This document shows positions 2,576 through 35,150 of a DNA stretch of 64,000 bases, piece by piece. Source of the stretch: Microbacterium sp. zg-Y625 (lineage in GTDB: Bacteria; Actinomycetota; Actinomycetes; Actinomycetales; Microbacteriaceae); the NCBI RefSeq assembly GCF_030246925.1, contig NZ_CP126740.1, positions 2,852,001-2,916,000 on the forward strand. Direction: 5' to 3'. The notes under the pieces were generated by a model. The model searched no databases. It saw only the letters and a list, made by a program, of their open reading frames with translations, and was not told where the DNA came from. Each line of letters starts with the position of its first letter. The first letter of the stretch is position 1. The translations under genes were made by a program, and so were the position numbers.

Positions 2576-4029
2576 GCGCGGGTGCAGCGGGCGGGTCCGT
2601 CGTCTCGGGCGGGTCCGTCGCGGCGATCGACCTGGGCGCGACGAGCGGCCGGGTGATCGTCGGGCACGTCGGTCCCGACACGCTCGAGGCGACGACCGTG
2701 GGCCGCTTCGCCAACGACCCGATCGCCACGCCCGACGGGCTGCACTGGAATCTGCTCGGACTGTACAGCGCCGCCCTCGCCGGGCTGCGTGACGCGCTGC
2801 GTGCGGCGCCCGACGTCGCCAGCATCGGCGTGGACTCGTGGGCCGTGGACTACGGGCTGCTGCGCGACGGGCGGCTGCTGGGCGCGCCGTTCCACTACCG
2901 CGATGCGCGCACCGAGCGCGGCGTCGCGGCGGTGCACGAGCGGATGCCGCACGCGGAGCTCTACCGCCGCAACGGGCTGCAGTTCCTGCCGTTCAACACG
3001 CTGTACCAGCTGGCCGCGGAGCCGACGGAGCTCCTCGGCTTCGCCGATACGGCACTGCTCGTGCCCGACCTCATCGGCTACTGGCTCACCGGCCAGGCGC
3101 GCACCGAGGTCACGAACGCCTCGACGACCGGCCTGCTGCGGGCCGGCACAGCGGACTGGGACGACGAGCTTCTCGGCGCCCTGGGCCTTCCCCGCGGCAT
3201 CCTCCCCTCCCTCATCGCGCCCGGCGAGCGCCTGGGCGCGCTGCTGCCCGGGGTCGCCGCGTCGCTCGGCGCCGAATCGGGCGTGTCCGTCACTGCGGTG
3301 GGGTCGCACGACACCGCCTCAGCGGTCGTCGCGGTGCCGATGCGGTCGGAGTCCGCGGCCTACATCTCCTGCGGCACGTGGGGGCTCGTCGGCGTCGAGG
3401 TGGAGCGGCCGGTGCTCACGGACGAGGCGTTCGCTGCGAACTTCACCAACGAGGGCGGCGTGGACGGTCGGGTGCGGCTGCTGCACAACGTGATGGGCCT
3501 GTGGGTGCTGAGCGAGACGGTGCGCGGCTGGGAGCGCGAGGGGCACGCGATCGACCTGCCGACGCTCTTGGATTCCGCGGCCGCAGTGGATGCCGCCTCG
3601 GTGCCGGTCTTCGACGTCGACGACCCGCGGTTCCTTCCGCCGGGCGACATGCCCGCGCGCATCGACCAGTGGTGCGCGGAGCACGGCCTGGCCGCGCCGC
3701 GGACGCGTGCCGAGTACGCCCGGTCGATCGTGGAGTCCCTCGCGCAGGCGTTCGCCGACACCGCCCGGCTCGCGGGCCGCATCGGCGGGGTGGACGTGGA
3801 GACGATCCACATCGTCGGCGGCGGGTCACTGAACCGCCTGCTGTGCCAGCGCACCGCCGATCGGGCGGGGCTGCCGGTGCTCGCGGGTCCGGTCGAGGCG
3901 ACCGCGCTCGGCAACCTGCTGGTGCAGGGTCGCGCCGCCGGCTTCGTCTCCGGCTCCCTGGAGTCGCTCCGGGATCTCGTCGCGCGTACGCACGCCCCGA
4001 CCCGGTACGCCCCCCGCGCCGCCGAGTGA
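2572..4029 (+). CDS. rhaB: Rhamnulokinase
   Basis: A 485-residue FGGY-type sugar kinase. It has the N-terminal phosphate loop AIDLGATSGRV (about residues 18-28), the substrate segment GVDSWAVDYGLL, GSHDTASAV and the C-terminal adenosine motif VGGGSLN. It phosphorylates L-rhamnulose to the substrate of the upstream aldolase. The start overlaps the aldolase stop (ATGA, 2572-2575). The C-terminus is unusual: the last codons GCC GAG TGA lie inside the first unit of a 20-bp-period repeat array, so the protein ends in Ala-Ala-Glu and its stop codon belongs to the repeat. Confidence 0.92.
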   Translation: MSAGAAGGSVVSGGSVAAIDLGATSGRVIVGHVGPDTLEATTVGRFANDPIATPDGLHWNLLGLYSAALAGLRDALRAAPDVASIGVDSWAVDYGLLRDGRLLGAPFHYRDARTERGVAAVHERMPHAELYRRNGLQFLPFNTLYQLAAEPTELLGFADTALLVPDLIGYWLTGQARTEVTNASTTGLLRAGTADWDDELLGALGLPRGILPSLIAPGERLGALLPGVAASLGAESGVSVTAVGSHDTASAVVAVPMRSESAAYISCGTWGLVGVEVERPVLTDEAFAANFTNEGGVDGRVRLLHNVMGLWVLSETVRGWEREGHAIDLPTLLDSAAAVDAASVPVFDVDDPRFLPPGDMPARIDQWCAEHGLAAPRTRAEYARSIVESLAQAFADTARLAGRIGGVDVETIHIVGGGSLNRLLCQRTADRAGLPVLAGPVEATALGNLLVQGRAAGFVSGSLESLRDLVARTHAPTRYAPRAAE

Positions 4030-4098
4030 GTATTCTCGGCGTCGAGTGAGTATTGGCGTCGCCGAGTGAGTATTCGAGGCGCCGAGTGAGTATTCGAG
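4021..4098 (+). repeat. GAGTGAGTATTC array, 4 direct copies at 20-bp spacing
   Basis: Cores at 4024-4035, 4044-4055 (last base G), 4064-4075 and 4084-4095, exactly 20 bp apart. The flanking 8 bp vary but are GC-rich. The first copy contains the rhaB stop codon. The last copy runs directly into the GAGGAG ribosome-binding site (4096-4101) of the next gene. The array therefore fills the whole intercistronic gap between rhaB and the serine hydrolase gene. Confidence 0.95.
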
Positions 4099-4108
4099 GA
4101 GATCACGG

Positions 4109-5086
4109 ATGACCGGGTACGGTGCCGCATTCGACTGGGTGCGGCGGCATGTCGAGGCGGAACGCCTGCCATCCGCCGTTCTGGGCATCGCTACGGCCGA
4201 CGGCGTCGTCGCGCTGGATGCGTTCGGAGCCACGCACGGCCGCACAGCGCGGGTGGACGACCCCTACCGACTGTTCTCGATCACCAAGGTCCTCACCGGC
4301 CTCACGGCCGCGCGGGCGATCGAACGCGGCCTGCTCACCGCGGAGACACCGCTCTCGGCGGCCGTGCCCGACTTCGGAGCCGATCGCGACGACGTCGTGC
4401 GTCTGCGTCACCTGGTGAGCCACACGTCCGGCATCCCGGAGCCTGCCCTCGACAGCGCGGTGCCGCTGCGGCAGGCACTGCTCGAACCCGGTCGCGATTT
4501 CGCCGCCGGCACCGCCTCGCGGTACTCCACCATCGCGTTCGAGGGGATCGCGGCGCTCGTGGCGCACGCCACGGGGCGCACCTGGGACGCCGATGTGGCG
4601 GACTGGACCCGCGCGGTCGGTGCCGGTGGGCTGACGCTGGACGAAGCGGCCGACCCGCACACGGTGGTCGACGGCCCCGAGCTCGGATTCGACGCGGCGG
4701 CGTTCGCCGGCCAGCGCAATCCGGGTGCGGGCATGATCGGCACCGCGGCCGACCTGCTCGCCGTCGGGGCGGCGCTGCTGCGCAACGGCGGCGAGATCGT
4801 GCGGCCCTCGACGCTGGCGATGATGCGGCGACCGCTCACCGGCGGCATCCCGAGGCTCGAACCGTATCCCGCCGAGCGAGGGCAGGACTGGGGCTTCACC
4901 TGGAACCTGCGCACGCGAGCGCCCGGGCTCATCGATCAGGACGTGTACGGCCACGGGGGCTGGGCGGGCACCGAGTTCTGGATCCATCCGACCGCGGGTG
5001 TGGCCTATGTGCTGCTCACCAACCTGGTGCAGCGGCCAGGGGTGGATGCGGACGAGCTCGACAACGCGGTCGTCGCCGCGCGCTGA
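4109..5086 (+). CDS. Serine hydrolase of the beta-lactamase / penicillin-binding-protein-like family
   Basis: A 325-residue protein with the S-x-x-K catalytic motif SITK at residues 57-60, a second-motif Tyr-Ser at about 139-140, and a C-terminal HGGW in place of the KTG box. This is the pattern of class C beta-lactamase-like esterases and D-amino-peptidases. No signal peptide is seen, so a cytoplasmic esterase or peptidase role is more likely than true beta-lactamase activity. The substrate cannot be told from sequence. The start is supported by GAGGAG seven bases upstream, at the edge of the repeat array. It follows rhaB by 79 bp and may be cotranscribed with it. Confidence 0.85.
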   Translation: MTGYGAAFDWVRRHVEAERLPSAVLGIATADGVVALDAFGATHGRTARVDDPYRLFSITKVLTGLTAARAIERGLLTAETPLSAAVPDFGADRDDVVRLRHLVSHTSGIPEPALDSAVPLRQALLEPGRDFAAGTASRYSTIAFEGIAALVAHATGRTWDADVADWTRAVGAGGLTLDEAADPHTVVDGPELGFDAAAFAGQRNPGAGMIGTAADLLAVGAALLRNGGEIVRPSTLAMMRRPLTGGIPRLEPYPAERGQDWGFTWNLRTRAPGLIDQDVYGHGGWAGTEFWIHPTAGVAYVLLTNLVQRPGVDADELDNAVVAAR

Positions 5087-5144
5087 GCCGCCGGCGGTGC
5101 GCTCGGCCCATATCACAGTGACCGGCAGAGCGCTACCATCCGGT

Positions 5145-5444
5145 ATGAACAGTCAGCTCAAACTCGCGCTGTCGGTTGCCGGGTACCTCCTCGGCGCCGC
5201 CGCCGGGATCGCCGGCATCGTCGTCGGCGCGATGCAGTCCGAACCGGGCTACATCGTCATCGGCGTCGCTTTCCTGTTGGCGGTCGTCGTCGCGTTCATC
5301 GCCGGTGCGACGGCGACGCCCCAGGGGTCGTTGTCCGGCCCGAAGTTCGGCGGCAAGTTCACCCCGCCGGACTGGGCGTGGTGGGTCGCGGCCGGGATCG
5401 TCGTGGTCGGCATGGTGATCGGAGGCATCCTTCTGGCCATGTGA
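5145..5444 (+). CDS. Small integral membrane protein, function unknown
   Basis: A 99-residue protein with three hydrophobic segments at about residues 7-27, 33-53 and 78-98. A short polar loop rich in Gly, Pro and Lys (GPKFGGKFTPPDW) lies between the second and third. No recognised enzymatic motif. A -10-like TACCAT (5134-5139) ends 5 bp before the ATG, so the transcript is probably leaderless. This also supports the start. The next gene begins about 50 bp downstream and also encodes a membrane protein. Confidence 0.75.
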   Translation: MNSQLKLALSVAGYLLGAAAGIAGIVVGAMQSEPGYIVIGVAFLLAVVVAFIAGATATPQGSLSGPKFGGKFTPPDWAWWVAAGIVVVGMVIGGILLAM

Positions 5445-5497
5445 ACCCTGCCCTTGCGCACCTGGTGCGACCCGCGCGAAGTGGCGAGACTGAGCGC

Positions 5498-6358
5498 ATG
5501 GATGGCTTGCGCCGCTGGGCGCTTTGGGTCGCTGTCGCCGCGATCGTGCTCGCGGTGTTCGCCTGCATCGGCGCCGGCTTCCTGATCTCACCGCCGTCGC
5601 TGGAAGACCGCATCCTGCTGCTGCAGCAGGACCCCTCCGCCGCGCCGGGTGAGCTCGACCAGGACGATATCGCCGATCTCAGCGCCGACGACTTCGGCGA
5701 GAGCGCCGACGATCCGCCCGGCCTGGCGATCCCCTATCTGGCCCTGCCACTGGGCCTGCTGCTGATCATCGTGGCACTCATGGCCTTGCCGCTGATCATC
5801 GGCAACCGCCGGGTGCCGCTCGTCGGCGGCATCGTGAGCATCGTAGGCGGGCTCGCCGCGGTGATCGGCGGCATCGTGATGACCATCGTTGCCATCGCCG
5901 CGCTGTTGACCATGGTGTCACTGTTCCTCGCGGCGCCCTGGGGAACCCTGGCGTACCTCGCGATCTTCGGCTTCTTCGACGTGGGGACATCGGCCGCCCT
6001 GCTCGGGCTCATCCTGGTGCTGCAGCTCGCGGCCATCGTCTTCCTGCTCGTCGCCCAGCAGCGGATCCTCGGCAACAAGCGGCTCGTCTTCTGGCTGCTG
6101 CTGTCACTACTCCTGACGCTGTTGACGATGCTCCTGCACTCGATCGTGCCGGTGATTCTCGTGAGCATCACGGATGCCGTGGGGGCGATCATCCTCGCCG
6201 TCGTCGGCGTCGTGTGGGGGCTGCTTCTGCTCGTCGGCGGGGTGATCTCACTGGTCAAGCAACTGAGTCTCGGGCGACAGGGCGGCGGCCCGCTGCGGGA
6301 GCGAGAGGCCGCCGACACGACCGTCGGCTCGGTCGGCGCCACGGCGCGCGCAGGCTAG
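5498..6358 (+). CDS. Polytopic membrane protein, function unknown
   Basis: A 286-residue protein. One N-terminal membrane segment (about residues 7-30) is followed by an acidic extracytoplasmic or loop region rich in Asp (around residues 45-75). Five or six further hydrophobic segments then run to residue 270, and the C-terminal tail is short, charged and GREGG-like. No family motif was recognised. The ATG at 5498 is chosen because the region before it reads as non-family sequence. A weak -10-like GAGACT (5486-5491) lies six bases upstream. Its last four bases overlap the end of the convergent gene at 6355. Confidence 0.75.
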   Translation: MDGLRRWALWVAVAAIVLAVFACIGAGFLISPPSLEDRILLLQQDPSAAPGELDQDDIADLSADDFGESADDPPGLAIPYLALPLGLLLIIVALMALPLIIGNRRVPLVGGIVSIVGGLAAVIGGIVMTIVAIAALLTMVSLFLAAPWGTLAYLAIFGFFDVGTSAALLGLILVLQLAAIVFLLVAQQRILGNKRLVFWLLLSLLLTLLTMLLHSIVPVILVSITDAVGAIILAVVGVVWGLLLLVGGVISLVKQLSLGRQGGGPLREREAADTTVGSVGATARAG

Positions 6359-6807
6359 CCGCGCGCCGGCACCACGAGGACGATGCAGGGCGCGACCAGG
6401 ACGCACGTGATCGAGAGCACGGTGTCGCTGTCATACACCGGCACCGGCGCCGGCTCGGCGCACGTCAGGGCGGATGCCGTGACGCGCTGAGCGGGATACT
6501 CCGTCCCCCGCGTGGTGACGACGACCGCGGCAGGCTCCGGGGCGCACAGGGTGATCTGGGCCGGGTCGGGCAGGGGGATGCGGCAGCCGGCGGCGTCCAC
6601 GGTGAAACCGGGGAGCGCGGGGTCGGCGCACGGCGCGTCGGCGACGTCGTCGAAGTCCAGCGTCGGCCGTACCGTGAGCCAGCCGAATCCGCCGTCCACG
6701 CCGCGCCGCACCACGTCGGCCTCGCCGGCCGGGCGCAGCGCACCGTAGAACAGCACCAGCGCCGCGGTGACGGCGATCGCGACCAGCGCGATGATCATGA
6801 CCTTCAC
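6355..6807 (-). CDS. Small membrane-anchored protein at the end of the contractile-tail operon
   Basis: A 150-residue protein that starts with GTG overlapping the stop of the gpI-like gene by four bases (GTGA). This ties it to the tail operon. An N-terminal membrane segment spans about residues 3-25. A middle region follows with six or more cysteines in the pattern of an exported, possibly disulfide-bonded domain, and a second hydrophobic stretch runs from about 132 to 148. No homologous family was recognised. An ATG at 6798 would be an alternative start three codons in. Its conserved position suggests membrane attachment or a regulatory role for the tail structure, but that is inference. Confidence 0.65.
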   Translation of the reverse strand: MKVMIIALVAIAVTAALVLFYGALRPAGEADVVRRGVDGGFGWLTVRPTLDFDDVADAPCADPALPGFTVDAAGCRIPLPDPAQITLCAPEPAAVVVTTRGTEYPAQRVTASALTCAEPAPVPVYDSDTVLSITCVLVAPCIVLVVPARG

Positions 6808-7595
6808 GCGCCGGGTTCCTCGGCGGCGAGGGCGGGGTGCGCTGGCGGCGCAGGGTGATCGGCGGGCGCTGGCGGCTCCGCGACGGTCGTCGGGGGCAGC
6901 TCCGCGGCCGGCCCGACCGACGGGTCAGCGGACTCGGGCGTCGGGCCGGGTGCGCCCGTGAGCACGGGGGCCGGTTGGCTGCCCGGGAAGGAGGGCTCCG
7001 GCGCATGCGCCGGTCCGCCGACGGGCAGCGTGGGCGGTGCCGCGACCTCCGGCGCGCCGGCGTCGGCACTGACCGGGCCGCCCGCGAACACGATCTCGGC
7101 GGTGACATGCGCCGGCTTCTCCTGCTGCACGATCCGTCGCACAAGCACCTGATGCGCGGCGGCTGCCGCGGGCAGGGACACGACGACGTGGAACGGACGC
7201 GGGCGCCCGGCGCCATCTGTCACCTCTTCGTCGATCCGCACGCCGGCCACTCCCGTCGCCCACTCGAGCGCCTCCCGCAGCCCCTGCGCGGTGCCGCGCA
7301 GCCGGGAGAGGCGCGCCGCCGCGGCGACCACCTGCCGCAGCCGTCCGCTGCCGGCATCGAACTGACCCTGGGCGTCGTCCAGCCAGCGGTCGAGGTCGAC
7401 CCAGCGCGCCAGGAACGGCACGAACCGGTCAGGCGTCCGCTGCGGGTCGAAGTACTCCGGCAGCCGCCGGAGCGTCTCCTCGACCGGCTCGTGCAGCTGG
7501 GACATGACCTCCAGCAGACTCGCGATCGGGGTGCCCACCCCGATCGTGCGCTGGTAGACCTCCGGCAGCAGCCGGGCGATGCGGTCAGAGCGCAT
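6804..7595 (-). CDS. Phage tail protein, gpI-like baseplate component
   Basis: A 263-residue protein. The first 165 residues match the P2 gpI / contractile-tail wedge family, with LLPEVYQRT near the N-terminus, LLEVMSQLHEPVEETLRRLPEYFDP, then FLARWVDLDRWLDD and a LRGTAQGLREALEWATGV segment. These are hallmark strings of this family in actinobacterial tail clusters. The remaining 95 or so residues form a Pro/Ala-rich tail of low complexity. It overlaps the stop of the large baseplate gene by 11 bp and is followed by the small anchored protein. In contractile particles gpI-type proteins join wedge protein J in the baseplate. Confidence 0.85.
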   Translation of the reverse strand: MRSDRIARLLPEVYQRTIGVGTPIASLLEVMSQLHEPVEETLRRLPEYFDPQRTPDRFVPFLARWVDLDRWLDDAQGQFDAGSGRLRQVVAAAARLSRLRGTAQGLREALEWATGVAGVRIDEEVTDGAGRPRPFHVVVSLPAAAAAHQVLVRRIVQQEKPAHVTAEIVFAGGPVSADAGAPEVAAPPTLPVGGPAHAPEPSFPGSQPAPVLTGAPGPTPESADPSVGPAAELPPTTVAEPPAPADHPAPPAHPALAAEEPGA

Positions 7596-13342: not shown

Positions 13343-14454
13343 CAGGTGCTCCGCTGCTCGTCGACGAGAACGTCGAGCGCGGATGCCGCGACCCAGGCGC
13401 GGGTTGTTCCGATGTCTGCCCGCGACTCCGCACGTACAGCCGGCAGATCGGGCCACGAGGGACGGACCGAGCGGGCGTGCGCCGGCCATGGGGTGTGCGT
13501 CGGCGGCAGGGACGGTACGGACGATCGCCGCTCCCCTGCGGCGGACGCTGCCGGGGAGGAGGGTGCGGGCCACGGCGACGGCGCGGGCCGCCAGGTGATC
13601 TGCGCGGAGGTCGGCTCCGCGGCCGGATGCCGACGGGCGTCGGCCGCGACGTGCGGGCGGGGGGCGGCGTTCCGGGCGCTGCGGTGCGGCGCGGCCGTCG
13701 CGCGGTCGGAGTCGGAGGTCGACACCCGGCGCGCGCCCGAAGCGTGCTCGGCCGTCGCCGGCGGCGTCGATGCCGATGCGTGGGGTGACGAGCCGGTTGC
13801 GGGGGCCGACTGCGCGAACGTGGGCGCTGACCAGGCGGAGGGCGGGCGGCGGGCGGCGTCACCCGGGAGACCGGTCGCGGCGGCCGGGGCATCCTGGCGG
13901 GCCATGCTGCGGACGGCGGGCGCCGCGGCGGGGCCGTCCGTCGAGTCGAACGTCGTGTGCCCGATCGCCCCGGGATCGCCCGACGTGGCAGCGGGGACCG
14001 GGGCCGGACCCCCTCGGCGACGGCGCGTGAGGACGCGCGGCGTAAGCGGGCGGCCGCCCGGCAGCTCGGCAGCGGAGGGGATCTGCGACCGCGGCGCCGA
14101 CGCGCGCGGCGCACCCGCCGCGGCGTCGGGAGACCCCGCGGCGCGACGTCCGGCGGCGGGGATCAGCGCCGTCGGCTCGGCGCGCGGCATCCCGACCTCG
14201 CCGCCGGGGGCGTCGAACGAGAACCACACCGGGTCGTGCGCGGAGACGTAGGCGGCGAGGTTCGGCTCCACGTCCGCCAGCCGCGGGTCGATGGGCGGGC
14301 CAGGCGAGCCGGTGCGCGCGAGCGAGCGCAGTCCGCCGGCGAGCGCCGCGACGCTGTGCGCGACGGTATCGACACCGTCCGCGATGCGGCCGAGCCCTCG
14401 GCGCGCGGCGGCTCCCAGCACCCGGCGCAGACCGGGTCGGCGGCGCTCACGCAT
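13342..14454 (-). CDS. Pro/Ala/Ser-rich protein of the tail cluster, function unknown
   Basis: A 370-residue protein of low complexity, dominated by Ala, Pro, Arg and Ser. Only the first 95 residues look like a folded segment (LAAYVSAHDPVWFSFDAPGG). The start overlaps the tube gene's end by eight bases, and the stop abuts the LysM gene start. It sits where other contractile clusters carry small assembly or tail-length proteins. A tape-measure or disordered linker role is conceivable, but no coiled coil or hydrophobic pattern supports it. Its low complexity may also hide a fast-evolving protein. Confidence 0.65.
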   Translation of the reverse strand: MRERRRPGLRRVLGAAARRGLGRIADGVDTVAHSVAALAGGLRSLARTGSPGPPIDPRLADVEPNLAAYVSAHDPVWFSFDAPGGEVGMPRAEPTALIPAAGRRAAGSPDAAAGAPRASAPRSQIPSAAELPGGRPLTPRVLTRRRRGGPAPVPAATSGDPGAIGHTTFDSTDGPAAAPAVRSMARQDAPAAATGLPGDAARRPPSAWSAPTFAQSAPATGSSPHASASTPPATAEHASGARRVSTSDSDRATAAPHRSARNAAPRPHVAADARRHPAAEPTSAQITWRPAPSPWPAPSSPAASAAGERRSSVPSLPPTHTPWPAHARSVRPSWPDLPAVRAESRADIGTTRAWVAASALDVLVDEQRST

Positions 14455-19150: not shown

Positions 19151-19188
19151 GCCGAGTGAGTATTCGCATCGCCGAGTGAGTACTCACC
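19151..19188 (+). repeat. GAGTGAGTATTC array, 2 direct copies
   Basis: Cores at 19154-19165 (GAGTGAGTATTC) and 19174-19185 (GAGTGAGTACTC), 20 bp apart. The second copy extends to a local palindrome GTGAGTACTCAC. The pair lies upstream of the PASTA gene start, in the opposite direction to the copies at 19251-19302. Confidence 0.9.
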
Positions 19189-19250
19189 GGCCGAGCCACC
19201 CGCCGCGGGCATCGACACACTGGTGTTCGTGAGTGCGCGCTCAGGGGCTC

Positions 19251-19303
19251 GAATACTCACTCGAGCCCGCGAATACTCACTCGGCAGCGCGAATACTCAC
19301 TCG
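19251..19303 (-). repeat. GAGTGAGTATTC array, 3 inverted copies
   Basis: Complementary cores GAATACTCACTC at 19251-19262, 19271-19282 and 19291-19302, again exactly 20 bp apart. The last copy contains the stop codon and the final GAG codon of the oxidoreductase gene. Together with the two forward copies at 19151-19188 this makes a facing pair of arrays separated by 62 bp. Confidence 0.95.
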
Positions 19304-20643
19304 GCAGCGAGGGCGGCGAGCGCGGGGCCCAGCGACAGCTCGGCGGTGCGCACGGCCTGGCCCGTCTCGAGGGAACGGTTGCCGGCGAGCCCGACGGACA
19401 CCGAGCGCACCCCGTCGTCCCACGTCGCGGCGCGGGCGAGCGGGTCCGCTTCGGCGCCCACGAACAGGTCACGCAAGAGCTGCGCGTCACCGCCGCCGTG
19501 CCCGCCCTCGCCCGCGGGAATCGGCACCTCGCGTGCGACCTCGAAGTGCCGCTGCACCACCAGTCGCTCGCTGACCGGCCGGCCGTCGTCGTCACGCACG
19601 GCGTCGGGCCGCGCGCTCGGATCCACCACGGGGCGGCCGTTGTCCGCGACCAGCACGGCACCGCGCTCGACGACCGTCAGCTCGGCGCGGCCGCGGGTGC
19701 CGTTGACCGCCACCGTATAGCCCTCCCACGGCGAGTGCGCGTTGAGCGCATACGACATCGACGCTCCCCCGGCGTAATCCACCACGAGCGCGAGGTTGTC
19801 CTCGATCGTGATGCCGGCATCGAACACGTCCCGGTCGCGCAGGTAGCCGTCGTGCTCCTCCTGCTCCAGGTAGAGCCCGCGCAGCGTCGGGTCATCGCGC
19901 AGGTCGAGGCTGAACGCATCGCGCAGCGGCGAGTCGCCGGTGCCCCGTTCAGGCCGCGCGCCGAGGCCGCGCCGCGCGGCGTTGTCCGCCCCGTAGAACC
20001 GCAGGCCTCCGCTGGCGAAGACCCGCGTGGGGACGTCGCCGATCCACCAGTTCACCAAGTCGAAGTGATGGCTGGCCTTGTGGATGAGGAGACCCCCGGA
20101 GCTCTCCTTGTCGCGATGCCAGCGCCGGAAGTAGTCCGCGCCGTGGGCGGTGTCGAGCACCCACTCGAAGTGCACCGAGGTCACCTCGCCGATCTCGCCC
20201 GACGAGATGACCTGCTTCAGCGCGCTGTTTCGCGGCGAGTAGCGGTAGTTGAAGGTGACCACCACCGGCAGCCCGGTGCGCTCGGCGGCTTCGGCGATGC
20301 GGCGCACCCCTTCCGCGGTCGTCGTCAGCGGCTTCTCGACGATGGCTCCCGCACCGGCCTCGAGCGCGGTGACGACGTGGTCGTCGTGGGTCCAATCCGG
20401 CGATGTGACGATCACCTGGTCCACGCGATGGCGACGCACCGCCTCGGCCAGCTCGGCCGGTGCGAACCGCGCGGGAACGGGCACCCCGGCATCCACGAGC
20501 CGTCGCTCGTACCAATCCACCCGGCCCGGGTTGGTGTCGCCCCAGGCGACCAGCTCTGCGGTGTCGGCGTGGGGGCCGGTGATGGCGTCAATGTACATCT
20601 GGGCACGACTGCCGGTGCCCACCAGGGCGTAACGAGTGCGCAT
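19297..20643 (-). CDS. Gfo/Idh/MocA-family oxidoreductase
   Basis: A 448-residue NAD(P)-dependent oxidoreductase with an N-terminal Rossmann motif (YALVGTGSRA), then VIVTSPDWTH, the invariant EKPLT of the family, and a C-terminal substrate domain including HKASHHFDLVNWWIG. These enzymes act on sugars, sugar acids or inositols. It ends in Ala-Ala-Glu-stop with the stop codon inside a GAGTGAGTATTC repeat. It is transcribed in the same direction as the two downstream-coded permeases (their genes lie at higher coordinates) and probably shares their operon, processing the imported sugar. Its substrate is unknown. Confidence 0.88.
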   Translation of the reverse strand: MRTRYALVGTGSRAQMYIDAITGPHADTAELVAWGDTNPGRVDWYERRLVDAGVPVPARFAPAELAEAVRRHRVDQVIVTSPDWTHDDHVVTALEAGAGAIVEKPLTTTAEGVRRIAEAAERTGLPVVVTFNYRYSPRNSALKQVISSGEIGEVTSVHFEWVLDTAHGADYFRRWHRDKESSGGLLIHKASHHFDLVNWWIGDVPTRVFASGGLRFYGADNAARRGLGARPERGTGDSPLRDAFSLDLRDDPTLRGLYLEQEEHDGYLRDRDVFDAGITIEDNLALVVDYAGGASMSYALNAHSPWEGYTVAVNGTRGRAELTVVERGAVLVADNGRPVVDPSARPDAVRDDDGRPVSERLVVQRHFEVAREVPIPAGEGGHGGGDAQLLRDLFVGAEADPLARAATWDDGVRSVSVGLAGNRSLETGQAVRTAELSLGPALAALAAE

Positions 20644-27597: not shown

Positions 27598-28602
27598 ATG
27601 GCCAAGACAGGTGCGACGACGATCGCCGACGTGGCTGCGCACGCGGGGGTGTCGCCGGCGACGGTGTCCCGCGTCATGAACGGTCGCTTCCTGGGCGATC
27701 CCGACGTCGGCGAGCGGGTGCGGGCGTCGGCCGCGCACTTGAACTACTCGCCCAACCACCTGGCGCGCAGCTTCGCGCTCGGAAAGACCAAGGCGATCGC
27801 CTTCCTCGTGCCCGACCTCGCCAACCCGGCCTTCCAGACGGTGCTCGCGGGGCTGAGCAAGGCTGCCGCCGCCGACGGCTACCGGGTGCTGGTGGCGGAC
27901 TCGGCCGAGTCCGCCGCGGATGAGCCGGTGCTGGCCGCCGAGGTGCGCAGCCGCTGCGACGCCATCGTGCTGTGCGCGCCGCGCATGAGCGAGGACGATC
28001 TCGAGCGGGCGACGGCGACACTCGGACCCGTGGTGCTGATGAACCGCTCGAGCCCGCGGGTGACTGCGCCCACGCTGTCGGTGGATTCACGGGCCGGGTT
28101 CGAGCTGATCGCGCAGCACCTGTACGGGCTGGGCCACCGCCGGCTGGTGTACGTCGCAGGTCCCGAGGGCGTCGCGAACGCCAACCGCATCAAGGGTCTC
28201 GGCGACTTCGCCGAGACGGTGGAAGACGTCACGATCACCCACGTCGCCGGGGGCGCGGGCAGCGAAGACGGGCTTGCGGCTGTCGAGGCCGTGATGTCCT
28301 CCGGGGCGACCGCGGCGCTCGCGTTCAACGACCTCGTCGCGGTGGGACTCGTGCATGGGCTCGTGGAGCGCGGCATCCGGGTGCCCGACGATGTGTCGGT
28401 CACGGGTTTCGACGACATCCCGTTCGCGCGGTTCCTGTCGCCGTCGCTGACGACCGCCTCGGTGCCGCACGACGTGCTGGGCACGCTCGCCTGGGCGCGG
28501 ATGCAGGCGCTCATGGCGGGGATGCCGCCCGAGCACAACGTCGTCTTCCAGCCCCGCCTGGAGGTGCGCCGCTCGACGGCCCCTCCCCCCGCTGCCGAGT
28601 GA
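27598..28602 (+). CDS. LacI-family transcriptional repressor of the oligosaccharide regulon
   Basis: A 334-residue regulator with the LacI helix-turn-helix TTIADVAAHAGVSPATVSRVM (in two parts) and a C-terminal periplasmic-binding-like domain (FLVPDLANPAFQTV, VTGFDDIPFARFLSPSLTTA). It sits between two of the four operators, supporting control of the permease, binding-protein, GH5 and its own genes. A GGAGGGGAG precedes the ATG. It ends Ala-Ala-Glu-stop and the stop codon is part of the first copy of a GAGTGAGTATTC array. Confidence 0.92.
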   Translation: MAKTGATTIADVAAHAGVSPATVSRVMNGRFLGDPDVGERVRASAAHLNYSPNHLARSFALGKTKAIAFLVPDLANPAFQTVLAGLSKAAAADGYRVLVADSAESAADEPVLAAEVRSRCDAIVLCAPRMSEDDLERATATLGPVVLMNRSSPRVTAPTLSVDSRAGFELIAQHLYGLGHRRLVYVAGPEGVANANRIKGLGDFAETVEDVTITHVAGGAGSEDGLAAVEAVMSSGATAALAFNDLVAVGLVHGLVERGIRVPDDVSVTGFDDIPFARFLSPSLTTASVPHDVLGTLAWARMQALMAGMPPEHNVVFQPRLEVRRSTAPPPAAE

Positions 28603-28730
28603 GTATTCGCGTGCCCGAGTGAGTATTCGCGTTCCCGAGTGAGTATTCGCGTGCCCGAGTGAGTATTCGCGACGAATACTCACTCGACGCTCGCAATACT
28701 CACTCGACGGCGCGAATACTCACTCGGCGG
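28592..28730. repeat. GAGTGAGTATTC array, 4 direct and 3 inverted copies
   Basis: Direct cores at 28597-28608, 28617-28628, 28637-28648 and 28657-28668; inverted cores at 28674-28685, 28694-28705 (one mismatch) and 28714-28725. Spacing within each orientation is 20 bp. At the switch point the sequence forms a 14-bp perfect stem with a three-base loop (CGAGTGAGTATTCG / CGAATACTCACTCG). The first copy contains the lacI stop. Confidence 0.95.
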
Positions 28731-28992: not shown

Positions 28993-30039
28993 TCAGAAGT
29001 CGAAGTCGCCGATGTTCTCCGCATCGAACACGAACGGGTCGCCCAGCAGAACGCCGCCGTCAGGGCCGACCTCGAACGAGCCGAGCTTGCCCGCTTCGAA
29101 GGTGTCGCCCTCCTCGCCCGCGATCTCGCCGGTCACGAGCGCCTGCGTGGCGAACGCTGCCAGGTAGCCGAGGTCGGCCGGGTTCCAGAGCGCGAACGCG
29201 GTCACGGTGCCGTCATCCACGTACTCGCGCATCTGGTTCGGGGTGCCGAGGCCGGTCAGCGCGACCGTGCCCTTGTAATCCGACGTCGACAGGTACCGCG
29301 CGGCCGCGGCGATCCCGACGGTGGTCGGCGACACGATGCCCTTCAGCTCGGGGTAGGTCTGCAGCAGCGCCGCCGTGCGGTCGAACGACGTCTGGTCGTC
29401 GTCGTCGCCGTAGACGACCTGCACGAGCTCGATGTCGGGGTGGCTCGCCGCCAGCTCCTCCTCCATCAGCTCGATCCACGTGTTCTGGTTGGTCGCGTTA
29501 GCCGAAGCCGAGAGGATCGCGATCTGGCCCGCGCCACCGATCTGCTCCGCGATCAGATCCACCTGCACCTGGGCGATGCCCTCGGGGCTCGCCTGGTTGA
29601 TGAACAGGTCGCGGCATTCCGGATTGGTGTCCGAGTCGAAGGTGACGACCTTGACGCCGGCCGACCGCGCCTCATCGAGCGCGTCGCAGATGGCCTCGGG
29701 GTCGTTCGCCGAGACGATGAGCCCGCCTACCCCCTGCTGCGCCGCGGTCTGGATGTAGCTGACCTGGGACGTCGGCGACGCCTCACTGGGCCCGACCTCC
29801 TCGAAGGTGCCGCCGAACTCCTCCGACGCCTCCTCGGCGCCGCCGGTCGAGGTGTCGAAGTACGGGTTGCCCAGGTTCTTCGGCAGCATCGTGATCGACA
29901 CCTCGGCATCCTCGCCGCCGGCGTCACCGCCTCCCGTGCCACCGCCGCCTCCGCCGGAGCATCCTGCGGCGGCGAGCGTGACGCCCAGGGCGAGAGCGGC
30001 GGCGATCCCTGCGCGCCGCGTGCGCTTCATTGCGAACAT
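28993..30039 (-). CDS. rhaS: Rhamnose ABC transporter substrate-binding lipoprotein
   Basis: A 348-residue family 2 (ribose-type) sugar-binding protein. A lipobox ends at Cys27 (LAAAGC), followed by a Gly-rich linker. The mature N-terminus ITMLPKNLGNPYFDT and the downstream GGLIVSANDPEAICDAL and ATNQNTW segments are characteristic of RhaS. The start MFAMKR is preferred because AAGGAA is about six bases upstream; MKR (30030) is an alternative. It is in the same direction as the permease and ATPase genes upstream, with a 146-bp gap holding a tandem repeat. The rhamnose assignment agrees with rhaD/rhaB 25 kb away. Confidence 0.88.
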   Translation of the reverse strand: MFAMKRTRRAGIAAALALGVTLAAAGCSGGGGGGTGGGDAGGEDAEVSITMLPKNLGNPYFDTSTGGAEEASEEFGGTFEEVGPSEASPTSQVSYIQTAAQQGVGGLIVSANDPEAICDALDEARSAGVKVVTFDSDTNPECRDLFINQASPEGIAQVQVDLIAEQIGGAGQIAILSASANATNQNTWIELMEEELAASHPDIELVQVVYGDDDDQTSFDRTAALLQTYPELKGIVSPTTVGIAAAARYLSTSDYKGTVALTGLGTPNQMREYVDDGTVTAFALWNPADLGYLAAFATQALVTGEIAGEEGDTFEAGKLGSFEVGPDGGVLLGDPFVFDAENIGDFDF

Positions 30040-30110
30040 CTGTGTTTCCTTCCGTGGTGCGAGGTTCTCGCGGGTGTGTTCAGGTCGGTGGTCGTGAATG
30101 GAGCACTCGG

Positions 30111-30180
30111 GCGGATGCCGCAAACCGGCGGATGCCGCAAACCGGGCGGATGCCGCAAACCGGCGGATGCCGCGATGCGG
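30111..30180. repeat. 17/18-bp tandem repeat in the rhaQ-rhaS gap
   Basis: Unit GCGGATGCCGCAAACCG begins at 30111, 30128 and 30146, with a fourth partial copy at 30163, so the period is 17, 18 and 17 bp. It lies in the 5' leader region of the binding-protein gene. The units contain the frequent 7-mer GGATGCC. It could be a slippage array or carry RNA structure. Confidence 0.85.
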
Positions 30181-30185
30181 GCGCG

Positions 30186-31274
30186 TCACCCCTGCGGCGC
30201 GCGCCCCGGCCCCCGTCCGCCGGCGCGCTCCGCGGCGCGCAGCCCCCGCCGCCGGCCGACGGCGGCGGTGCGGCGGGCGTGCACCCAGGCCAGCACGCTG
30301 GCCGAGACGACCGAGACGATCAGCAGCACGCCGGTGATGACGTTGATGATGTCACTGGTGATCCCCGCCAGGCGCAGAGCGCTGCCGAGCGTGCCGATCA
30401 GCAGCACGCCGGCGATGACGCCGTGCAGTGCCCCGCGTCCGCCGAAGATCGACACCCCGCCCAGCAGTACCGCGGCGATGATCTGCAGCTCCATCCCCAT
30501 CGCGTTGTCGCCGCGCGCGTTGGAGTACAGCAGCGTGAAGTAGACGCCTGCGAAGCCCGACACCGTCCCCGACATCACGAACAGCAGGAACTTCGCCCGC
30601 CCGACGTCGATACCCGAGAAGTGGGCCGCCTCCTTGTTGAGACCGATGGCGTAGAGCGACCGGCCGAACGGAGTGAAGTGCAGCAGCACCGCGAAGGCGA
30701 TGGCCAGCACGATGAAGGGCACCATGATCCCGGGGATCGGTGTGCCGGGGATGTTGGCTTTGGCGAGGTCGGTCCATTCCTCGGGGAAGTCCGTGACGGC
30801 CGTCGTGCCCAAGAGCCCCACGGCGATGCCACGGAACAGCGCCAGCGTGCCGATCGTGACGGCGAGCGACGGCAGTCCGACGACGGTGACGAGGAACCCG
30901 TTCAGCGCTCCGGCGATCGCCCCGACGATGATCGCGAGCACCGCCGCTAGCGCGAACGGCACGCCGCCCTGAGTGAGGATGCCGGTCGTCACGCTGGCGA
31001 GCCCGACGACGGATGCCACCGACAGGTCGATCTCCTCGGTGATGATGATGAGCGTCATCGGCAGCGCGATGAGCAGGATCGGCGCGACGTCCCGCAGCAG
31101 GTAGGTCACCGTCAGCGGGCTGTCGAAGTTGCGCACCGTGAGGAGCGCGACGACGACGACGAGCAGCAGGATGCCGATGATCGCCGACTCGCGCGTGAGC
31201 AGCACGCGGCGCCACGCCGGGCGGGCGTGCGGGGCGTACAGCCGCACCGGGACGGTCTCGGTCGCGACGGTCAT
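30186..31274 (-). CDS. rhaQ: Rhamnose ABC transporter permease
   Basis: A 362-residue RbsC-like permease with about eight membrane segments. The conserved [30 protein letters not shown] region is present in pieces, with [17 protein letters not shown]-type and [15 protein letters not shown] motifs. It pairs with RhaP. The last 25 residues are Arg/Gly/Pro-rich and likely cytoplasmic. It overlaps the RhaP stop by four bases, and the RhaS gene follows after the tandem repeat. Confidence 0.88.
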
Positions 31275-32308
31275 CGGGCCTCCTCACGTTGGGCGACGAG
31301 TCTTCGGTGCTGACGCACCGCGAGCACGCGATCGAGCACGATCGACCCGATGATGAGCACGCCGACGACGGCGCGCTGCCAGAAGTCGTCGATGCCGAGA
31401 ATCGGCAGCGCCCGGTTGATCGTCAGCAGCAGGAACGCCCCGATCGCCGCGCCCCACACCGTGCCGACGCCGCCCGAGATCGCGACGCCGCCGATGACGG
31501 CCGCGCCGATCGCCTGCAGCTCCCACCCCGTGCCCGCGGCCGAGCTCACCGTGCCGTACCGCGCGGCGTACAGCACACCCGCGAGCCCCGACAGCGCGCC
31601 CGACACCACGAACGCCGTGATGATCCGGCTGCTGACCTTCAAGCCGTAGAGGTGCGCGGCCGACGGGTCCGAGCCGATGGCGTAGAACTCGCGCCCACCC
31701 CGGGTGTTGCGCAGGTACCAGGCCGCGGCGATCAGCACGACGACGGCGATCACGGTGAGCACCGGGATGCCGAGCAGCTGCTCGGTGCCGAGGCCGCGGA
31801 AGTTCCGCGGCAGATCCGACGCGTTGATGCGGTCCGACCCCGTCCACGCGACGTTGAGGCCCCGGTAGACGTACATCGTGCCGAGGGTGATCACGAGCGC
31901 CGGCACCTTGGCCCAGGCCACGAGCATGCCGTTGATCGCACCGAGCAGCCCGCCGAGCAGGATGCCGCCGAAGAAGACCGCGATCATCGGGATGCCGGGA
32001 ATGTCGATGAAGAGCCGCCCGGTGAGGTAGGCGGTGAGCCCGACGATCGAGCCGACCGACAGGTCGACGCTGCGGGTGATGATGACGAAGGCCTGGCCGA
32101 CGGCCACGAGCAGCAGCAGCGACGGGGTGAGGAGCAGGTCGCGGAACCCGTCGCCCGAGAAGACGAACCCGGGGTTGGCGGCGGTCGCCGCCACGATGAC
32201 GATGATGAGCGCCAGCGCGATGCCGGTCTCGCGGGCGCGGGCGACGCGGCGCACCACGGCGCCGGCGGCGCCGCCGGCGGGGGCCGGGCGGGTCAGGGTC
32301 GCGCTCAT
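31271..32308 (-). CDS. rhaP: Rhamnose ABC transporter permease
   Basis: A 345-residue permease of the ribose/rhamnose type. Motifs include [21 protein letters not shown] (in parts), [16 protein letters not shown], and [20 protein letters not shown], which is the cytoplasmic coupling region. Its start overlaps the ATPase gene's end, and it overlaps the next permease by four bases. In RhaSTPQ systems the two permeases form a heterodimer. Confidence 0.88.
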
Positions 32309-33834
32309 GCCGCCGCCTCCGCACCGGCATCCGCCGTCGCCGCGAACATGATCGCCTCGGGTGTCGCCTCGCTGCGGGCGAACTCTCCGGTGAGGCGCCC
32401 CTCGCGCATGACGAGCACCCGGTCGGCCATGCCCAGCACCTCCGGCAGCTCGGACGAGATCATGAGGATCGCGATCCCCTGCTGCGCGAGTTCGCTGAGC
32501 AGCCGGTGCACCTCGGCCTTTGTGCCGACGTCGATGCCGCGCGTGGGCTCGTCGACGATCAGCACCGTCGGCTCGGTGGCGAGCCATTTGCTCAGCACCA
32601 CCTTCTGCTGATTGCCGCCCGACAGGGTGCCCGCCTCGGTGTCGAGGGCTGCGGCCTTCACTTCGAGTCGGCTCGCCCAGAGCTTGGCGGCGCGGTTCTC
32701 CGCGCCCGTCCAGATGAGGCCCCAGCGCGCCAGTCGCGAGCGGATGGCGAGGGTGATGTTGCGGGAGACCCCGTCGTCGAGCACGAGCCCCTGCCGGCGG
32801 CGGTCCTCCGGCACCAGCGCGATGCCGCGGGCGATCGCCACGCGCGGGTTCCCCTTGGGGAGGGCCGAACCGTGCAGAACGACCGATCCGCTCTCATACG
32901 CGTCGACGCCGAAGACGGCACGGGCGACCTCGCTGCGTCCGGCTCCGACGAGGCCGGCCAGCCCCACGATCTCACCGGCGCGCAGCTGGAAGGACACGTC
33001 GCGGAACACCCCGGCGCGGGTGAGGCCGCGCACGTCGAGAACGACCTCGCCGACCTCGGCGGGGAGTTTGGGGAAGAGGTCGGTGACGTCGCGGCCGACC
33101 ATCTGGCGCACGAGCTCGTCGACCGTGGTGTCGGCGATCGCCGTCGTGTCGACGTAGGAGCCGTCGCGCATGACCGTCACGGTGTCGCACAGGGCGAAGA
33201 CCTCGTCGAACCGGTGTGAGATGAACAGCAGCGCCCTGCCCTCGTCGCGCAGGCTCCGCGCCACCGCGAAGAGCCGCTCGACCTCCACACCCGACAGGGC
33301 GGCGGTCGGCTCGTCCATGATGAGCACCCTGGCATCCAATGAGATGGCTTTGGCGATCTCGATGATCTGCTGATCGGCGATCGACAGACCCTCGGTGATG
33401 CGGTCGGGGTCGAGCGAGACGCCGAGGCGTGCGAAGAGCCGCTCGGTCTCGTCGCGCATCGCCTTGCGGTCGATGCGCCCGAGGCGGGTGACGGGCTGGC
33501 GCCCCATGAAGATGTTCTCGGTGACCGACAGGTCGGGGAAGAGGGTCGGCTCCTGGTAGATCACGGCGATGCCGGCCGCCTTGGACTGAGCCGTGCTGCC
33601 GAAGTCGACGGGCTCGCCGTTCAGCAGGACGTCGCCCGAGTCGCGGCGGTAGAGCCCCGCGATGATCTTCACGAGCGTGGACTTGCCGGCGCCGTTCTCG
33701 CCGATGAGTGCGTGGATCGAGCCGAAGTCCAGCGCGAGGCTGCCCGAGCGCAGCGCCACCACGGCGCCGAACGACTTGACGACGCGCCGGAGCACCAGGG
33801 CAGGGTGCCCCGTCTGGTCGGCTGCGGATGCCAT
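32305..33834 (-). CDS. rhaT: Rhamnose ABC transporter ATP-binding protein
   Basis: A 509-residue tandem ABC protein. Domain one has Walker [11 protein letters not shown] near residue 45, signature [10 protein letters not shown] and Walker [12 protein letters not shown]. Domain two has a degenerate Walker A (GLVGAGRSE), signature LSGGNQQKV and [12 protein letters not shown]. This layout is typical of ribose/rhamnose uptake ATPases. The Met at 33834 was chosen because GGAGAGG is six bases upstream, although ATG codons 11 residues earlier are also in frame. It is the first gene of the operon and divergent from the LacI gene. Confidence 0.9.
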
Positions 33835-33871
33835 GGCCATCCTCTCCATCGAGGTTGCGGGTTCCAAAATT

Positions 33872-33887
33872 CCTGAATCGATTCAGG
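33872..33887. promoter_or_regulatory. Operator of the rhamnose ABC operon
   Basis: CCTGAATCGATTCAGG is a perfect 16-bp palindrome containing TGAATCGATTCA, the usual form of a LacI-family site with a central CG. It lies in the 151-bp divergent gap between the ATPase gene and the LacI regulator gene (33835-33985), 38 bp from the ATPase start. It is probably the site for the adjacent regulator. Confidence 0.8.
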
Positions 33888-33985
33888 GGAGTTCAGGCTA
33901 CTGTATGAACCTCAGGGCACCGGGGTCAAGAAGGCGTCGGACCGGTGACCGAATCGTGACCCCGACGACGGAGTGGGAGGACGCG

Positions 33986-34996
33986 ATGCCGGCGAGCATC
34001 CGCGACGTGGCAGTGCGCGCGGGCGTGTCCGTGGGCACCGTCTCGAACGTGCTCAACCGTCCGGGCGAGGTGTCCGCCGAGTCGGTGGAGCGGGTGACCC
34101 GGGCCATCGAAGACCTGGGGTACGTGCGCAACGACGCGGCGCGCAAGCTGCGGGCCGGGGTCAGCACGACGGTCGGATTCGTGGTGCTCGACGGGCAGAA
34201 CCCGTTCTACACCGACGTCGTGCGCGGCGCCGAGGACGAGGCCACGCGTCACGGCATCGCGATCCTCTACGGCAACACCGACGAGGATCCGGGGCGCGAG
34301 AAGGTGTACCTGGACCTCTTCCAGGAGCAGCAGGTGCGGGGGCTGTTGATCGCCCCGTACGGCGACATCACCGCGCGCCTGCAGCGGCTGCGCTCCGGCG
34401 GCATCCCGGCCGTGCTCGTCGATCGCTTCAGCGCCGACGGGCGGTTCTCGTCGGTGTCGGTCGACAGCGTCGCGGGCGGCCGCCTCGCGGTGGAGCACCT
34501 CATCGCGGGCGGGCGACGGCGCATCGCGTTCGTCGGGGGGCCGTTCGACATCCGTCAGGTCAACGACCGGCTCGCGGGCGCCCGCGCGGCCGCCGACAAT
34601 GCGAGCGAGCGGGTGGGGCTGGAGGTCATCGCGACGTCCGGCATGACCGTCGAGGAGGGGGTCGCCGCCGGCGCGCGGGTGCTGGCACGCCCCCGCCGTG
34701 AGTGGCCCGACGCGCTCTTCGCCGCCAACGATCTGCTCGCGCTCGGGCTGCTGCAGTCGCTCGTGGTCGACGGACGTGCGGTGGTGCCCGGTGACATCGC
34801 GCTGATCGGGTTCGACGACATCCCGTTCGCCGCCGCGGCAGCGGTGCCGCTGTCGTCGATCCGGCAGCCGAGCCGCATGATCGGGCGCACGGCGCTGCGC
34901 GTGCTGCTCGAGGAAGCGGCCGATCCCGACAGCGTGCCGCGGCAGACCGTCTTCCCGCCGGAACTCGTCGTGCGGGCGTCGACGGCGGGGCGCTGA
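33986..34996 (+). CDS. LacI-family regulator of the rhamnose transporter
   Basis: A 336-residue LacI-type protein with helix-turn-helix SIRDVAVRAGVSVGTVSNVL and the effector domain (TVGFVVLDGQNPFYTDVV, LIGFDDIPFAAAAAVPLSSI). The start is chosen from the GGGAGG five bases upstream. It is divergent from the rhamnose ABC operon with the 16-bp palindrome between, so it is probably its repressor. A -10/-35 pair is not obvious. Downstream lies a seven-copy repeat array. Confidence 0.9.
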   Translation: MPASIRDVAVRAGVSVGTVSNVLNRPGEVSAESVERVTRAIEDLGYVRNDAARKLRAGVSTTVGFVVLDGQNPFYTDVVRGAEDEATRHGIAILYGNTDEDPGREKVYLDLFQEQQVRGLLIAPYGDITARLQRLRSGGIPAVLVDRFSADGRFSSVSVDSVAGGRLAVEHLIAGGRRRIAFVGGPFDIRQVNDRLAGARAAADNASERVGLEVIATSGMTVEEGVAAGARVLARPRREWPDALFAANDLLALGLLQSLVVDGRAVVPGDIALIGFDDIPFAAAAAVPLSSIRQPSRMIGRTALRVLLEEAADPDSVPRQTVFPPELVVRASTAGR

Positions 34997-35018
34997 GGGT
35001 CAGGCCCTCCGGCGGCGC

Positions 35019-35150
35019 GAATACTCACTCGGCGAGGCGAGTACTCACTCGGCGAGGCGAGTACTCACTCGGCGAGGCGAGTACTCACTCGGCAGCGCGA
35101 ATACTCACTCGGCAGCGCGAATACTCACTCGGCAGCGCGAATACTCACTC
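35019..35150 (-). repeat. GAGTGAGTATTC array, 7 copies, all inverted
   Basis: Complementary cores at 35019-35030, 35039-35050, 35059-35070, 35079-35090, 35099-35110, 35119-35130 and 35139-35150, all 20 bp apart. Copies two to four read GAGTACTCACTC (a GAGTACTC palindrome); the rest read GAATACTCACTC. It fills most of the gap between the LacI gene and the transglutaminase gene stop and is the longest array here. Confidence 0.95.

What the first reader, a model, noticed from the sequence alone, without database searches (positions are those of the whole stretch)
4021..35150. A 20-bp-period repeat family (GAGTGAGTATTC) in four intergenic arrays
I count 23 copies in 64 kb: four at 4024-4095, two plus three at 19154-19302, seven at 28597-28725 and seven at 35019-35150. 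In every array the core recurs exactly every 20 bp, about two turns of B-DNA, while the 8 bp between cores vary. A site read on the same face of the helix by a protein would give this constraint. Arrays occur in direct, facing and inverted arrangement. They are next to two sugar-uptake regulons and the rhamnose genes. I do not know a described element with this layout. Possible roles: multi-site regulator or nucleoid-protein array, RNA hairpin insulator, or a mobile miniature repeat.
Basis: seen in the sequence. Interest (0 to 1): 0.85.

Follow-up and report, generated by a model that had tools for sequence, protein, structure and literature searches.

The report
Oriented repeat arrays at gene ends
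One small group of Microbacterium species carries dozens of short, precisely spaced DNA repeat arrays that point away from the ends of genes and seem to be held there by selection; this looks like an undescribed kind of gene-boundary mark, although what it does has not been tested.

Summary
All 23 window copies exist (17 exact, 6 with one mismatch). The host genome has 281 exact copies, against 0 for the backward control. The stretches I fetched hold 85 arrays with 315 copies, and 224 of 230 steps are exactly 20 bp. Arrays are oriented: 53 of 83 with both neighbours called have their 5' end (head) within 25 nt of a stop codon or overlapping it, against 18.5 expected. In 24 host arrays the TGA of the first copy is the gene's stop codon. 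Opposed neighbouring arrays were only tail to tail.

The family is nearly confined to one clade: tandem pairs occur in 6 of 366 held genomes of the genus and, in a family sample of 398, only in the host. Orthologous arrays keep site and core (0.04 differences per site), while spacers are near saturation (0.44) and copy number changes. Three sister species have fewer, decayed or lost arrays.

A selected RNA hairpin is not supported. No REP transposase was found. I favour a DNA-level, protein-bound array at transcription-unit ends; partner and function are untested.

The parts
4024..4095 (+). array of 4 copies; first copy holds the TGA stop of the upstream gene; tail lies 13 bp before the next start codon
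   Evidence: orthologous site has one copy in G031 and one mismatched copy in M. pullorum (G025)
2572..4029 (+). FGGY-family carbohydrate kinase gene whose stop codon is in the first copy
4109..5086 (+). beta-lactamase-family gene downstream of the array
19154..19185 (+). array of 2 copies, tail to tail with the next array
19251..19302 (-). array of 3 copies; the copy at 19291-19302 holds the TGA stop of the gene 19297-20643(-)
19297..20643 (-). Gfo/Idh/MocA-family oxidoreductase gene ending in the array
28597..28668 (+). array of 4 copies; first copy holds the TGA stop of the upstream LacI-type regulator
28674..28725 (-). array of 3 copies, tail to tail with 28597-28668 across an exact 5-bp gap
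27598..28602 (+). LacI-family regulator gene ending in the array
35019..35150 (-). array of 7 copies in a convergent gap, 10 nt after the stop of the gene 35161-36006(-)
   Evidence: orthologous site has 3 copies in G031 and none in M. pullorum
35161..36006 (-). transglutaminase-like gene upstream (in array sense) of the 7-copy array
33956..34996 (+). LacI-family regulator gene convergent onto the 7-copy array

Best explanation
A clade-specific family of oriented DNA arrays. The unit is a 13-bp asymmetric core, C-GAGTGAGTA(T/C)TC, plus a loose GC-rich spacer, usually repeated 2-8 times at 20 bp. Most arrays sit with their 5' end (head) against the end of a gene, and especially between convergent genes. 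Shown: core, step, orientation, placement, conservation of site and core with turnover of spacers and copy number, more exact copies at the head than at the tail in the host, and scarcity or relics in some sister species. Inferred: a protein binds the double-stranded core, several copies on one DNA face (20 bp is about two turns), and the bound array acts as a boundary that stops or insulates RNA polymerase arriving from the head side. Tail-to-tail pairs would serve two opposed genes. Neither the protein nor an effect on transcription has been observed.
For: Core positions 1-9 carry 1.7-2.0 bits in three genomes and in G025 too except position 8 (1.48), while the spacer is loose. Orthologous G000/G067 arrays differ by 0.039 per site in the core and 0.436 in the spacer (unrelated arrays 0.456), with the same copy number in only 6 of 35 pairs, so the core is kept by something other than inertia. 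Heads lie within 25 nt of a stop codon (overlaps included) in 53 of 83 arrays (random placement and orientation: mean 18.5, maximum 29 in 2000 runs); G067 38 of 52 against 15.7; G031 35 of 50 against 19.8. Array-bearing gene ends are convergent in 37 of 56, other gene ends in 139 of 463 (Fisher p 3e-7). Opposed neighbours only tail to tail, with a gap of exactly 5 bp in 12 of 24 such G000 pairs. Of 75 G000 arrays with 3 or more copies, the head copy is inexact in 6 and the tail copy in 25; copies with at least 7 of 12 matches lie at exactly +20 beyond the tail in 8 of 47 arrays (0 or 1 at other offsets) and at -20 before the head in 0 of 85. RNA folding does not survive the stricter control.
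Against: No partner protein identified and no transcription data. 25 of 83 heads face a start codon (11 of them in divergent gaps) rather than a stop. The window array at 4024 lies between two codirectional genes with a start codon 13 bp after its tail, awkward for a strong terminator. Arrays are dispensable: M. pullorum (G025) has 35 and G753 3 pair matches against 255 in the host, and blind tiles of both mostly lack them. The 5-bp gap is absent from the 12 G067 pairs. The head-tail difference is significant only in G000 (G067 p 0.15, G031 p 0.09), and tail remnants in G067 are near background (2 of 36). A drive that copies only intact cores could mimic selection on the core.
Confidence: 0.4

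Rival explanations
1. A selfish or neutral repeat. An enzyme or recombination process once copied intact cores around the genome and may still duplicate them in tandem; arrays persist near gene ends because insertions elsewhere are removed by selection. No host function.
For: Spacers are alike within one array (0.231) and unlike between arrays of the genome (0.426), i.e. local duplication. Arrays are few or relic-like in G025, G753 and, by copy number, G031. The array-rich genomes are one clade, as after a single burst.
Against: Sites are old: at least 31 of 42 G031 loci and 24 of 41 G067 loci coincide with G000 arrays. Heads abut stop codons far more often than random placement in the same gaps, which removal of harmful insertions does not explain. 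No candidate enzyme; no PF01797 transposase in 10 genomes.
Confidence: 0.28
2. A supercoiling element like E. coli BIME-2: the arrays recruit gyrase or a nucleoid protein where positive supercoils build up ahead of RNA polymerase, at transcription-unit ends.
For: Convergent-gap enrichment; alternation of an AT-richer core and GC-rich spacer every two helical turns. BIME-2 elements are enriched in gyrase sites in E. coli (passages of PMC6379681).
Against: Nine near-invariant core bases are more than gyrase is known to need (recalled); nothing here tests gyrase; a fixed orientation would not be expected.
Confidence: 0.15
3. An RNA element in the 3' UTR: the sense transcript folds or is bound, affecting mRNA 3' ends, stability or translation termination, as described for REPs within 15 nt of stop codons.
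For: Sense orientation right after stop codons. Sense RNA folds better than dinucleotide shuffles (mean z -4.18, antisense -1.57, 75 arrays) and slightly better than column-permuted arrays (mean z -1.28 in G000, -0.99 in G067; antisense -0.48 and -0.04). One-sided changes that keep a stem occur: T10 to C in 90 of 682 copies turns a G-U pair into G-C. REPs within 15 nt of stops are reported to act on translation (passages of PMC12306157).
Against: Against column-permuted arrays 15.7% (G000) and 22.1% (G067) of permutations are at least as stable, and 20.4% for the consensus. In 682 copies the five predicted hairpin pairs show no double-sided compensatory change, while C12 changes to G in 32 and G13 to another base in 101, breaking the pair. 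25 of 83 heads face start codons.
Confidence: 0.12

Closest known systems
REP / BIME elements (GTAG and CGTC super-families, RAYT-linked)
   Same: Short interspersed intergenic repeats, clustered, mostly downstream of genes and between convergent or codirectional genes; termini of GTAG REPs often supply a TAG stop codon to flanking ORFs (passages of PMC3733652). Here the core supplies TGA.
   Different: Core is asymmetric with no double-sided stem changes; no GTAG/CGTC tag among the conserved positions; strict 20-bp head-to-tail arrays; no PF01797 transposase in 10 genomes. The link of REPs to RAYT proteins is recalled.
MIRU of mycobacteria
   Same: Short repeats of an actinobacterium that sit exactly at gene boundaries: MIRUs appear to insert at start codons (passage of PMC12548453).
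   Different: [quoted passage not shown] here the unit is 20 bp and mostly at gene 3' ends.
Sal-box / TTF1 terminator sites of mammalian rDNA
   Same: Short sites flanking a transcribed region, bound in an orientation-dependent way, with polar stopping of polymerase (passages of PMC11358750). The resemblance is in layout only.
   Different: Eukaryotic Pol I system; no homologous protein sought or claimed; effect on transcription here unknown.
Neisseria DNA uptake sequences
   Same: About 12-bp motif in hundreds of copies, some as inverted pairs after genes (recalled; search listing only).
   Different: Uptake sequences are dispersed single copies or pairs, not 20-bp-step arrays (recalled); no uptake system was examined here.

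Membership tests
REP/BIME (RAYT-linked) | palindromic unit whose stem is conserved by paired changes | tested here: not met
   no double-sided compensatory change at five predicted pairs in 682 copies (one-sided T10 to C in 90 keeps its pair); fold only mildly better than column-permuted arrays
REP/BIME (RAYT-linked) | RAYT-type transposase (PF01797) in the genome | tested here: not met
   0 of 10 genomes, while the control search rings in 5 of 14 named genomes
REP/BIME (RAYT-linked) | GTAG or CGTC tag at one end | tested here: not met
   conserved positions read C GAGTGAGTA(T/C)TC G; CGTC occurs only in some variable spacers
REP/BIME (RAYT-linked) | extragenic, mostly downstream of genes, common between convergent genes | tested here: met
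BIME-2-type gyrase site | gyrase binding and cleavage | not testable with these tools
   needs gyrase cleavage mapping
MIRU | unit with an ORF coupled to the next gene | tested here: not met
   20-bp unit whose TGA falls in every frame within three copies, so in arrays of three or more (75 of 85 host arrays) no sense ORF can run through
Intrinsic (hairpin plus T-tract) terminator | GC-rich hairpin followed by a T-tract | tested here: not met
   1 of 56 array-bearing gene ends (22 of 463 others) by my own scan; no Rfam match in the window
Polar protein-bound terminator array (Sal-box-like) | oriented tandem sites after genes | tested here: met
   (58 of 83 heads face a stop codon; 25 do not)
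Polar protein-bound terminator array (Sal-box-like) | sequence-specific protein that blocks polymerase in one direction | not testable with these tools
   no partner protein or transcript data
[quoted passage not shown]
   12-14 bp core, 8-bp spacers that recur within and between arrays; CRISPR sizes from PMC3733652; cas genes not sought
DNA uptake sequence | promotes uptake of DNA carrying it | not testable with these tools
   no transformation data

The most novel reading that the evidence does not exclude
A bacterial counterpart of the Sal-box principle: a dedicated DNA-binding protein fills oriented tandem sites at the ends of transcription units and stops RNA polymerase (or separates convergent transcription) in one direction only. 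It would have arisen in one Microbacterium clade and been abandoned by some of its species, where the arrays now decay.
Probability: 0.2. Interest if true: 0.88.

Novelty: new variant of a known kind. Interest (0 to 1): 0.57.

Why it matters
High-GC bacteria often lack recognisable terminators (recalled); by my own scan only 23 of 519 gene ends in the fetched host stretches have a hairpin with a T-tract. A clade that added dozens of oriented arrays at gene ends, with some species keeping and others lacking them at the same orthologous sites, is a natural experiment: comparing array-rich with array-poor sister species can show whether such arrays set transcript ends, protect convergent genes, or do nothing. 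If a partner protein exists, it should be findable as a gene kept in array-rich species and lost in array-poor ones.

Tried and rejected
RNA hairpin: first looked strong (z -4.2 against dinucleotide shuffles), but is only mildly better than column-permuted arrays and shows no double-sided pair changes. RAYT/REP: no PF01797 in 10 genomes. Rfam: nothing in the window. Phage, plasmid or viral origin: no match to the exact pair pattern in viral contigs, nor to one window array each in phages and plasmids. CRISPR-like addition at the head: spacers of orthologous arrays match no better from the tail than from the head, so tail decay more likely reflects weaker constraint than age. Inverted copying of one arm to make tail-to-tail pairs: arms of the pairs I looked at carry different spacers (by eye). 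Frame-independent stop cassette as the purpose: TGA is no better kept than the rest of the core. Among 65 heads that overlap a gene (four genomes), the stop is in the first copy in 59 and in the second in 6, which selection against longer proteins would explain. tRNA genes next to start-facing arrays: none near them in the 19 stretches scanned or in the window.

Literature: the exact 12-mer and its complement gave 2 and 1 papers, unrelated by title and abstract start. Searches on Microbacterium repeats and gene-end tandem repeats listed nothing relevant. Other searches. So no description was found in this open-access library; subscription papers are not covered. Of papers I saw only listings, and passages of PMC12306157, PMC12548453, PMC11358750, PMC3733652 and PMC6379681.

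Errors on the way: several loci (pheT and gatB) printed in the wrong orientation, and the trees contain misoriented sequences; one search replaces both. One search was an empty script. Loci L263 and L097-L102 were fetched but not analysed.
Full report
OBSERVATION. The finding is genome-wide: the host genome (G000, unnamed, 3,259,775 bases, one contig) has 281 exact copies, 144 forward and 137 reverse, and none of the backward control, with 208 pairs at 20 bp. I fetched stretches around listed arrays plus arbitrary blocks; with the window this is 572 kb. They hold 85 arrays and 315 copies (251 exact, so 30 of the 281 exact copies lie outside). Of the steps, 224 of 230 are exactly 20 bp, and 75 of the 85 arrays have three or more copies.

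UNIT. Across 682 copies in four genomes, positions 1-9 (GAGTGAGTA) and the C before them are nearly invariant. Position 10 is T or C, position 12 is C with 5% G in the host, position 13 is mostly G, and the rest of the 8-bp spacer is loose and GC-rich.

PLACEMENT AND ORIENTATION. With my own gene caller, 83 host arrays have neighbours on both sides. Heads face a stop codon in 58, at a median of 5 nt; 53 are within 25 nt, overlaps included. Random placement and orientation in the same gaps gives 18.5 (maximum 29 in 2000 runs). G067 gives 38 of 52 against 15.7 and G031 35 of 50 against 19.8 (these sets include 1 and 7 single copies). Heads that overlap the gene use the TGA of the first copy in 59 of 65 cases over four genomes and that of the second in 6. 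Of 56 array-bearing gene ends, 37 are convergent, against 139 of 463 other ends. In nine 20-kb blocks chosen without regard to arrays, 4 of 52 convergent ends, 1 of 26 codirectional ends with a gap over 100 bp and 0 of 97 with a shorter gap had an array in the tested position. Against a strict 3'-end rule, 25 of 83 heads face a start codon; 11 of these lie in divergent gaps and 4 are lone arrays pointing the other way between codirectional genes. Opposed neighbours under 800 bp apart are all tail to tail (24, 12, 10 and 2 pairs in G000, G067, G031 and G025), with a gap of exactly 5 bp in 12, 0, 3 and 1 of them.

DISTRIBUTION. In the genus, exact pairs (T or C at position 10) occur in 4 of 198 sampled genomes. 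With up to three mismatches they occur in 6 of 366 held genomes: G000, G067, G031, G025, a single 4-copy array in G753, and a variant core GAGTGCGTATTC in G133. In the family sample only G000 matched, 1 of 398 genomes; that sample held 9 genomes of the genus and none of the other array bearers. A triple-pattern scan of the named species collection found only Microbacterium pullorum, whose contig lengths equal those of G025; the host's own or very near records may be left out there. By PheT and GatB the four array genomes are each other's nearest kin among the genomes listed (G031 97/94%, G025 93/93%, G067 92/94% to G000, others at most 86% and 89%). They form one clade in both gene trees (14 and 11 genomes chosen from the hits; support 1.000 and 0.999), but the two trees disagree on branching inside it. 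G753 was not in the trees; over 12 kb around its array it is 83-91% identical to G031, G025 and G067 in the main aligned blocks.

HISTORY. Loci with both flanks found are nearly always occupied: G000 to G067 26 of 27 (of 64 loci), G000 to G031 32 of 35, G000 to G025 5 of 7, G031 to G000 31 of 31 (of 42), G067 to G000 24 of 24 (of 41). These figures are biased, because most fetched target stretches were chosen for holding arrays; the safe reading is that at least 31 of 42 G031 loci and 24 of 41 G067 loci are shared with G000. Tiles chosen blind show absence: in 400 kb of G025 there was no 20-bp GAGTGAG pair, and of 12 G000 loci with a flank there, two kept one motif within 250 nt and ten none (two of the ten sit at tile edges). 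In 399 kb of G753 (19 of 20 tiles blind), 12 G000 loci have both flanks; 3 keep one motif with one or two mismatches and 9 none. I read these as relics of lost arrays (alignments), which the tree conflict leaves as an inference. At the window's own sites, the 4-copy array at 4024 is one copy in G031 and one mismatched copy in G025, and the 7-copy array at 35019 is three copies in G031 and absent in G025.

CONSTRAINT. In 35 orthologous G000/G067 array pairs the cores differ by 0.039 per site and the spacers by 0.436, nearly as much as spacers of unrelated arrays (0.456); flanks are 83.8% identical (median) and copy number agrees in 6 of 35. Cores were found by matching, which caps their difference at 2 of 12, but the value is far below the cap. 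Spacers within one array are alike (0.231) and between arrays unlike (0.426); spacer types also differ slightly between G000 and G067 (0 of 300 permutations) but not between G000 and G031 (263 of 300). So units are born and lost locally while something holds the core. In G000 the head copy is inexact in 6 of 75 arrays and the tail copy in 25 of 75 (p 0.0002). Faded copies follow the tail at exactly +20 in 8 of 47 arrays in G000, 5 of 38 in G031, 3 of 12 in G025, but only 2 of 36 in G067. G067 (9 and 16 of 43 inexact at head and tail) and G031 (4 and 10 of 18) lean the same way without significance; G025 does not clearly (3 and 4 of 11).

STOP CODONS. PheT shows that the exact overlap is not fixed: in G000 and G031 the stop is inside the first copy, in G067 the array starts 10 nt after the stop, and array-less G025 ends in GAG TGA by itself. 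GatB ends in AAE-stop inside the array in G000, G031 and G067, against AAQ and other ends in relatives; G025 has two copies there of a changed core, GAGTGAGCGCTC.

RNA OR DNA. The sense strand can fold, but tandem arrays of permuted units fold nearly as well, and predicted pairs break without double-sided compensation, although one one-sided change (T10 to C, 90 of 682) keeps its pair. Canonical terminators are rare everywhere and not enriched at arrays: 1 of 56 against 22 of 463. I therefore place the recognition in double-stranded DNA, as inference.

MECHANISM. Best supported, at 0.4: a protein-bound, oriented boundary array at transcription-unit ends. Shown are the sequence, placement, orientation and constraint. 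Inferred are the protein, cooperative binding on one face, and the effect on polymerase. Rivals: selfish or neutral repeat 0.28, supercoiling element 0.15, RNA element 0.12.

KNOWN KINDS. It looks most like gene-end repeats of the REP/BIME sort and shares their location and habit of supplying stop codons (passages), but fails three defining features tested here (paired stem, tag, RAYT). It is not filed as a REP. I rate it a new variant of a known kind, intergenic gene-end repeats.

Noticed in passing
L223 (G133 C3:45000-64999), about 13521-13572, - strand sense: A related array with a changed core (GAGTGCGTATTC, GAGTGCGCATTC and further faded copies) at 20 bp, close to a gene end, in a species outside the array clade; a sign that the family may be older than the clade.
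   Followed up: partly
L136 (G025, gatB 3' end): Two tandem copies of a different core, GAGTGAGCGCTC, at 20 bp where the sister species have GAGTGAGTATTC arrays: either decay or a drifting core.
   Followed up: partly
window 4084-4109: The ribosome-binding-site-like GAGGAG of the beta-lactamase-family gene follows directly on the last core (by eye), and the orthologous junction in two other species has just one core copy there.
   Followed up: partly
L210 (G025 C18:117000-136900): M. pullorum keeps seven GAGTGAG arrays within about 15 kb while 400 kb of blind tiles have none.
   Followed up: no
L065 13498 and 17685, L220 8881, L052 2774 (host): Arrays 17-25 nt upstream of start codons with their head toward the start, perhaps over promoter elements; their role cannot be 3'-end related for that gene.
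   Followed up: partly
pheT and gatB of G000, G031, G025, G067: The two gene trees place the four species differently inside a well-supported clade, suggesting recombination between these species.
   Followed up: no
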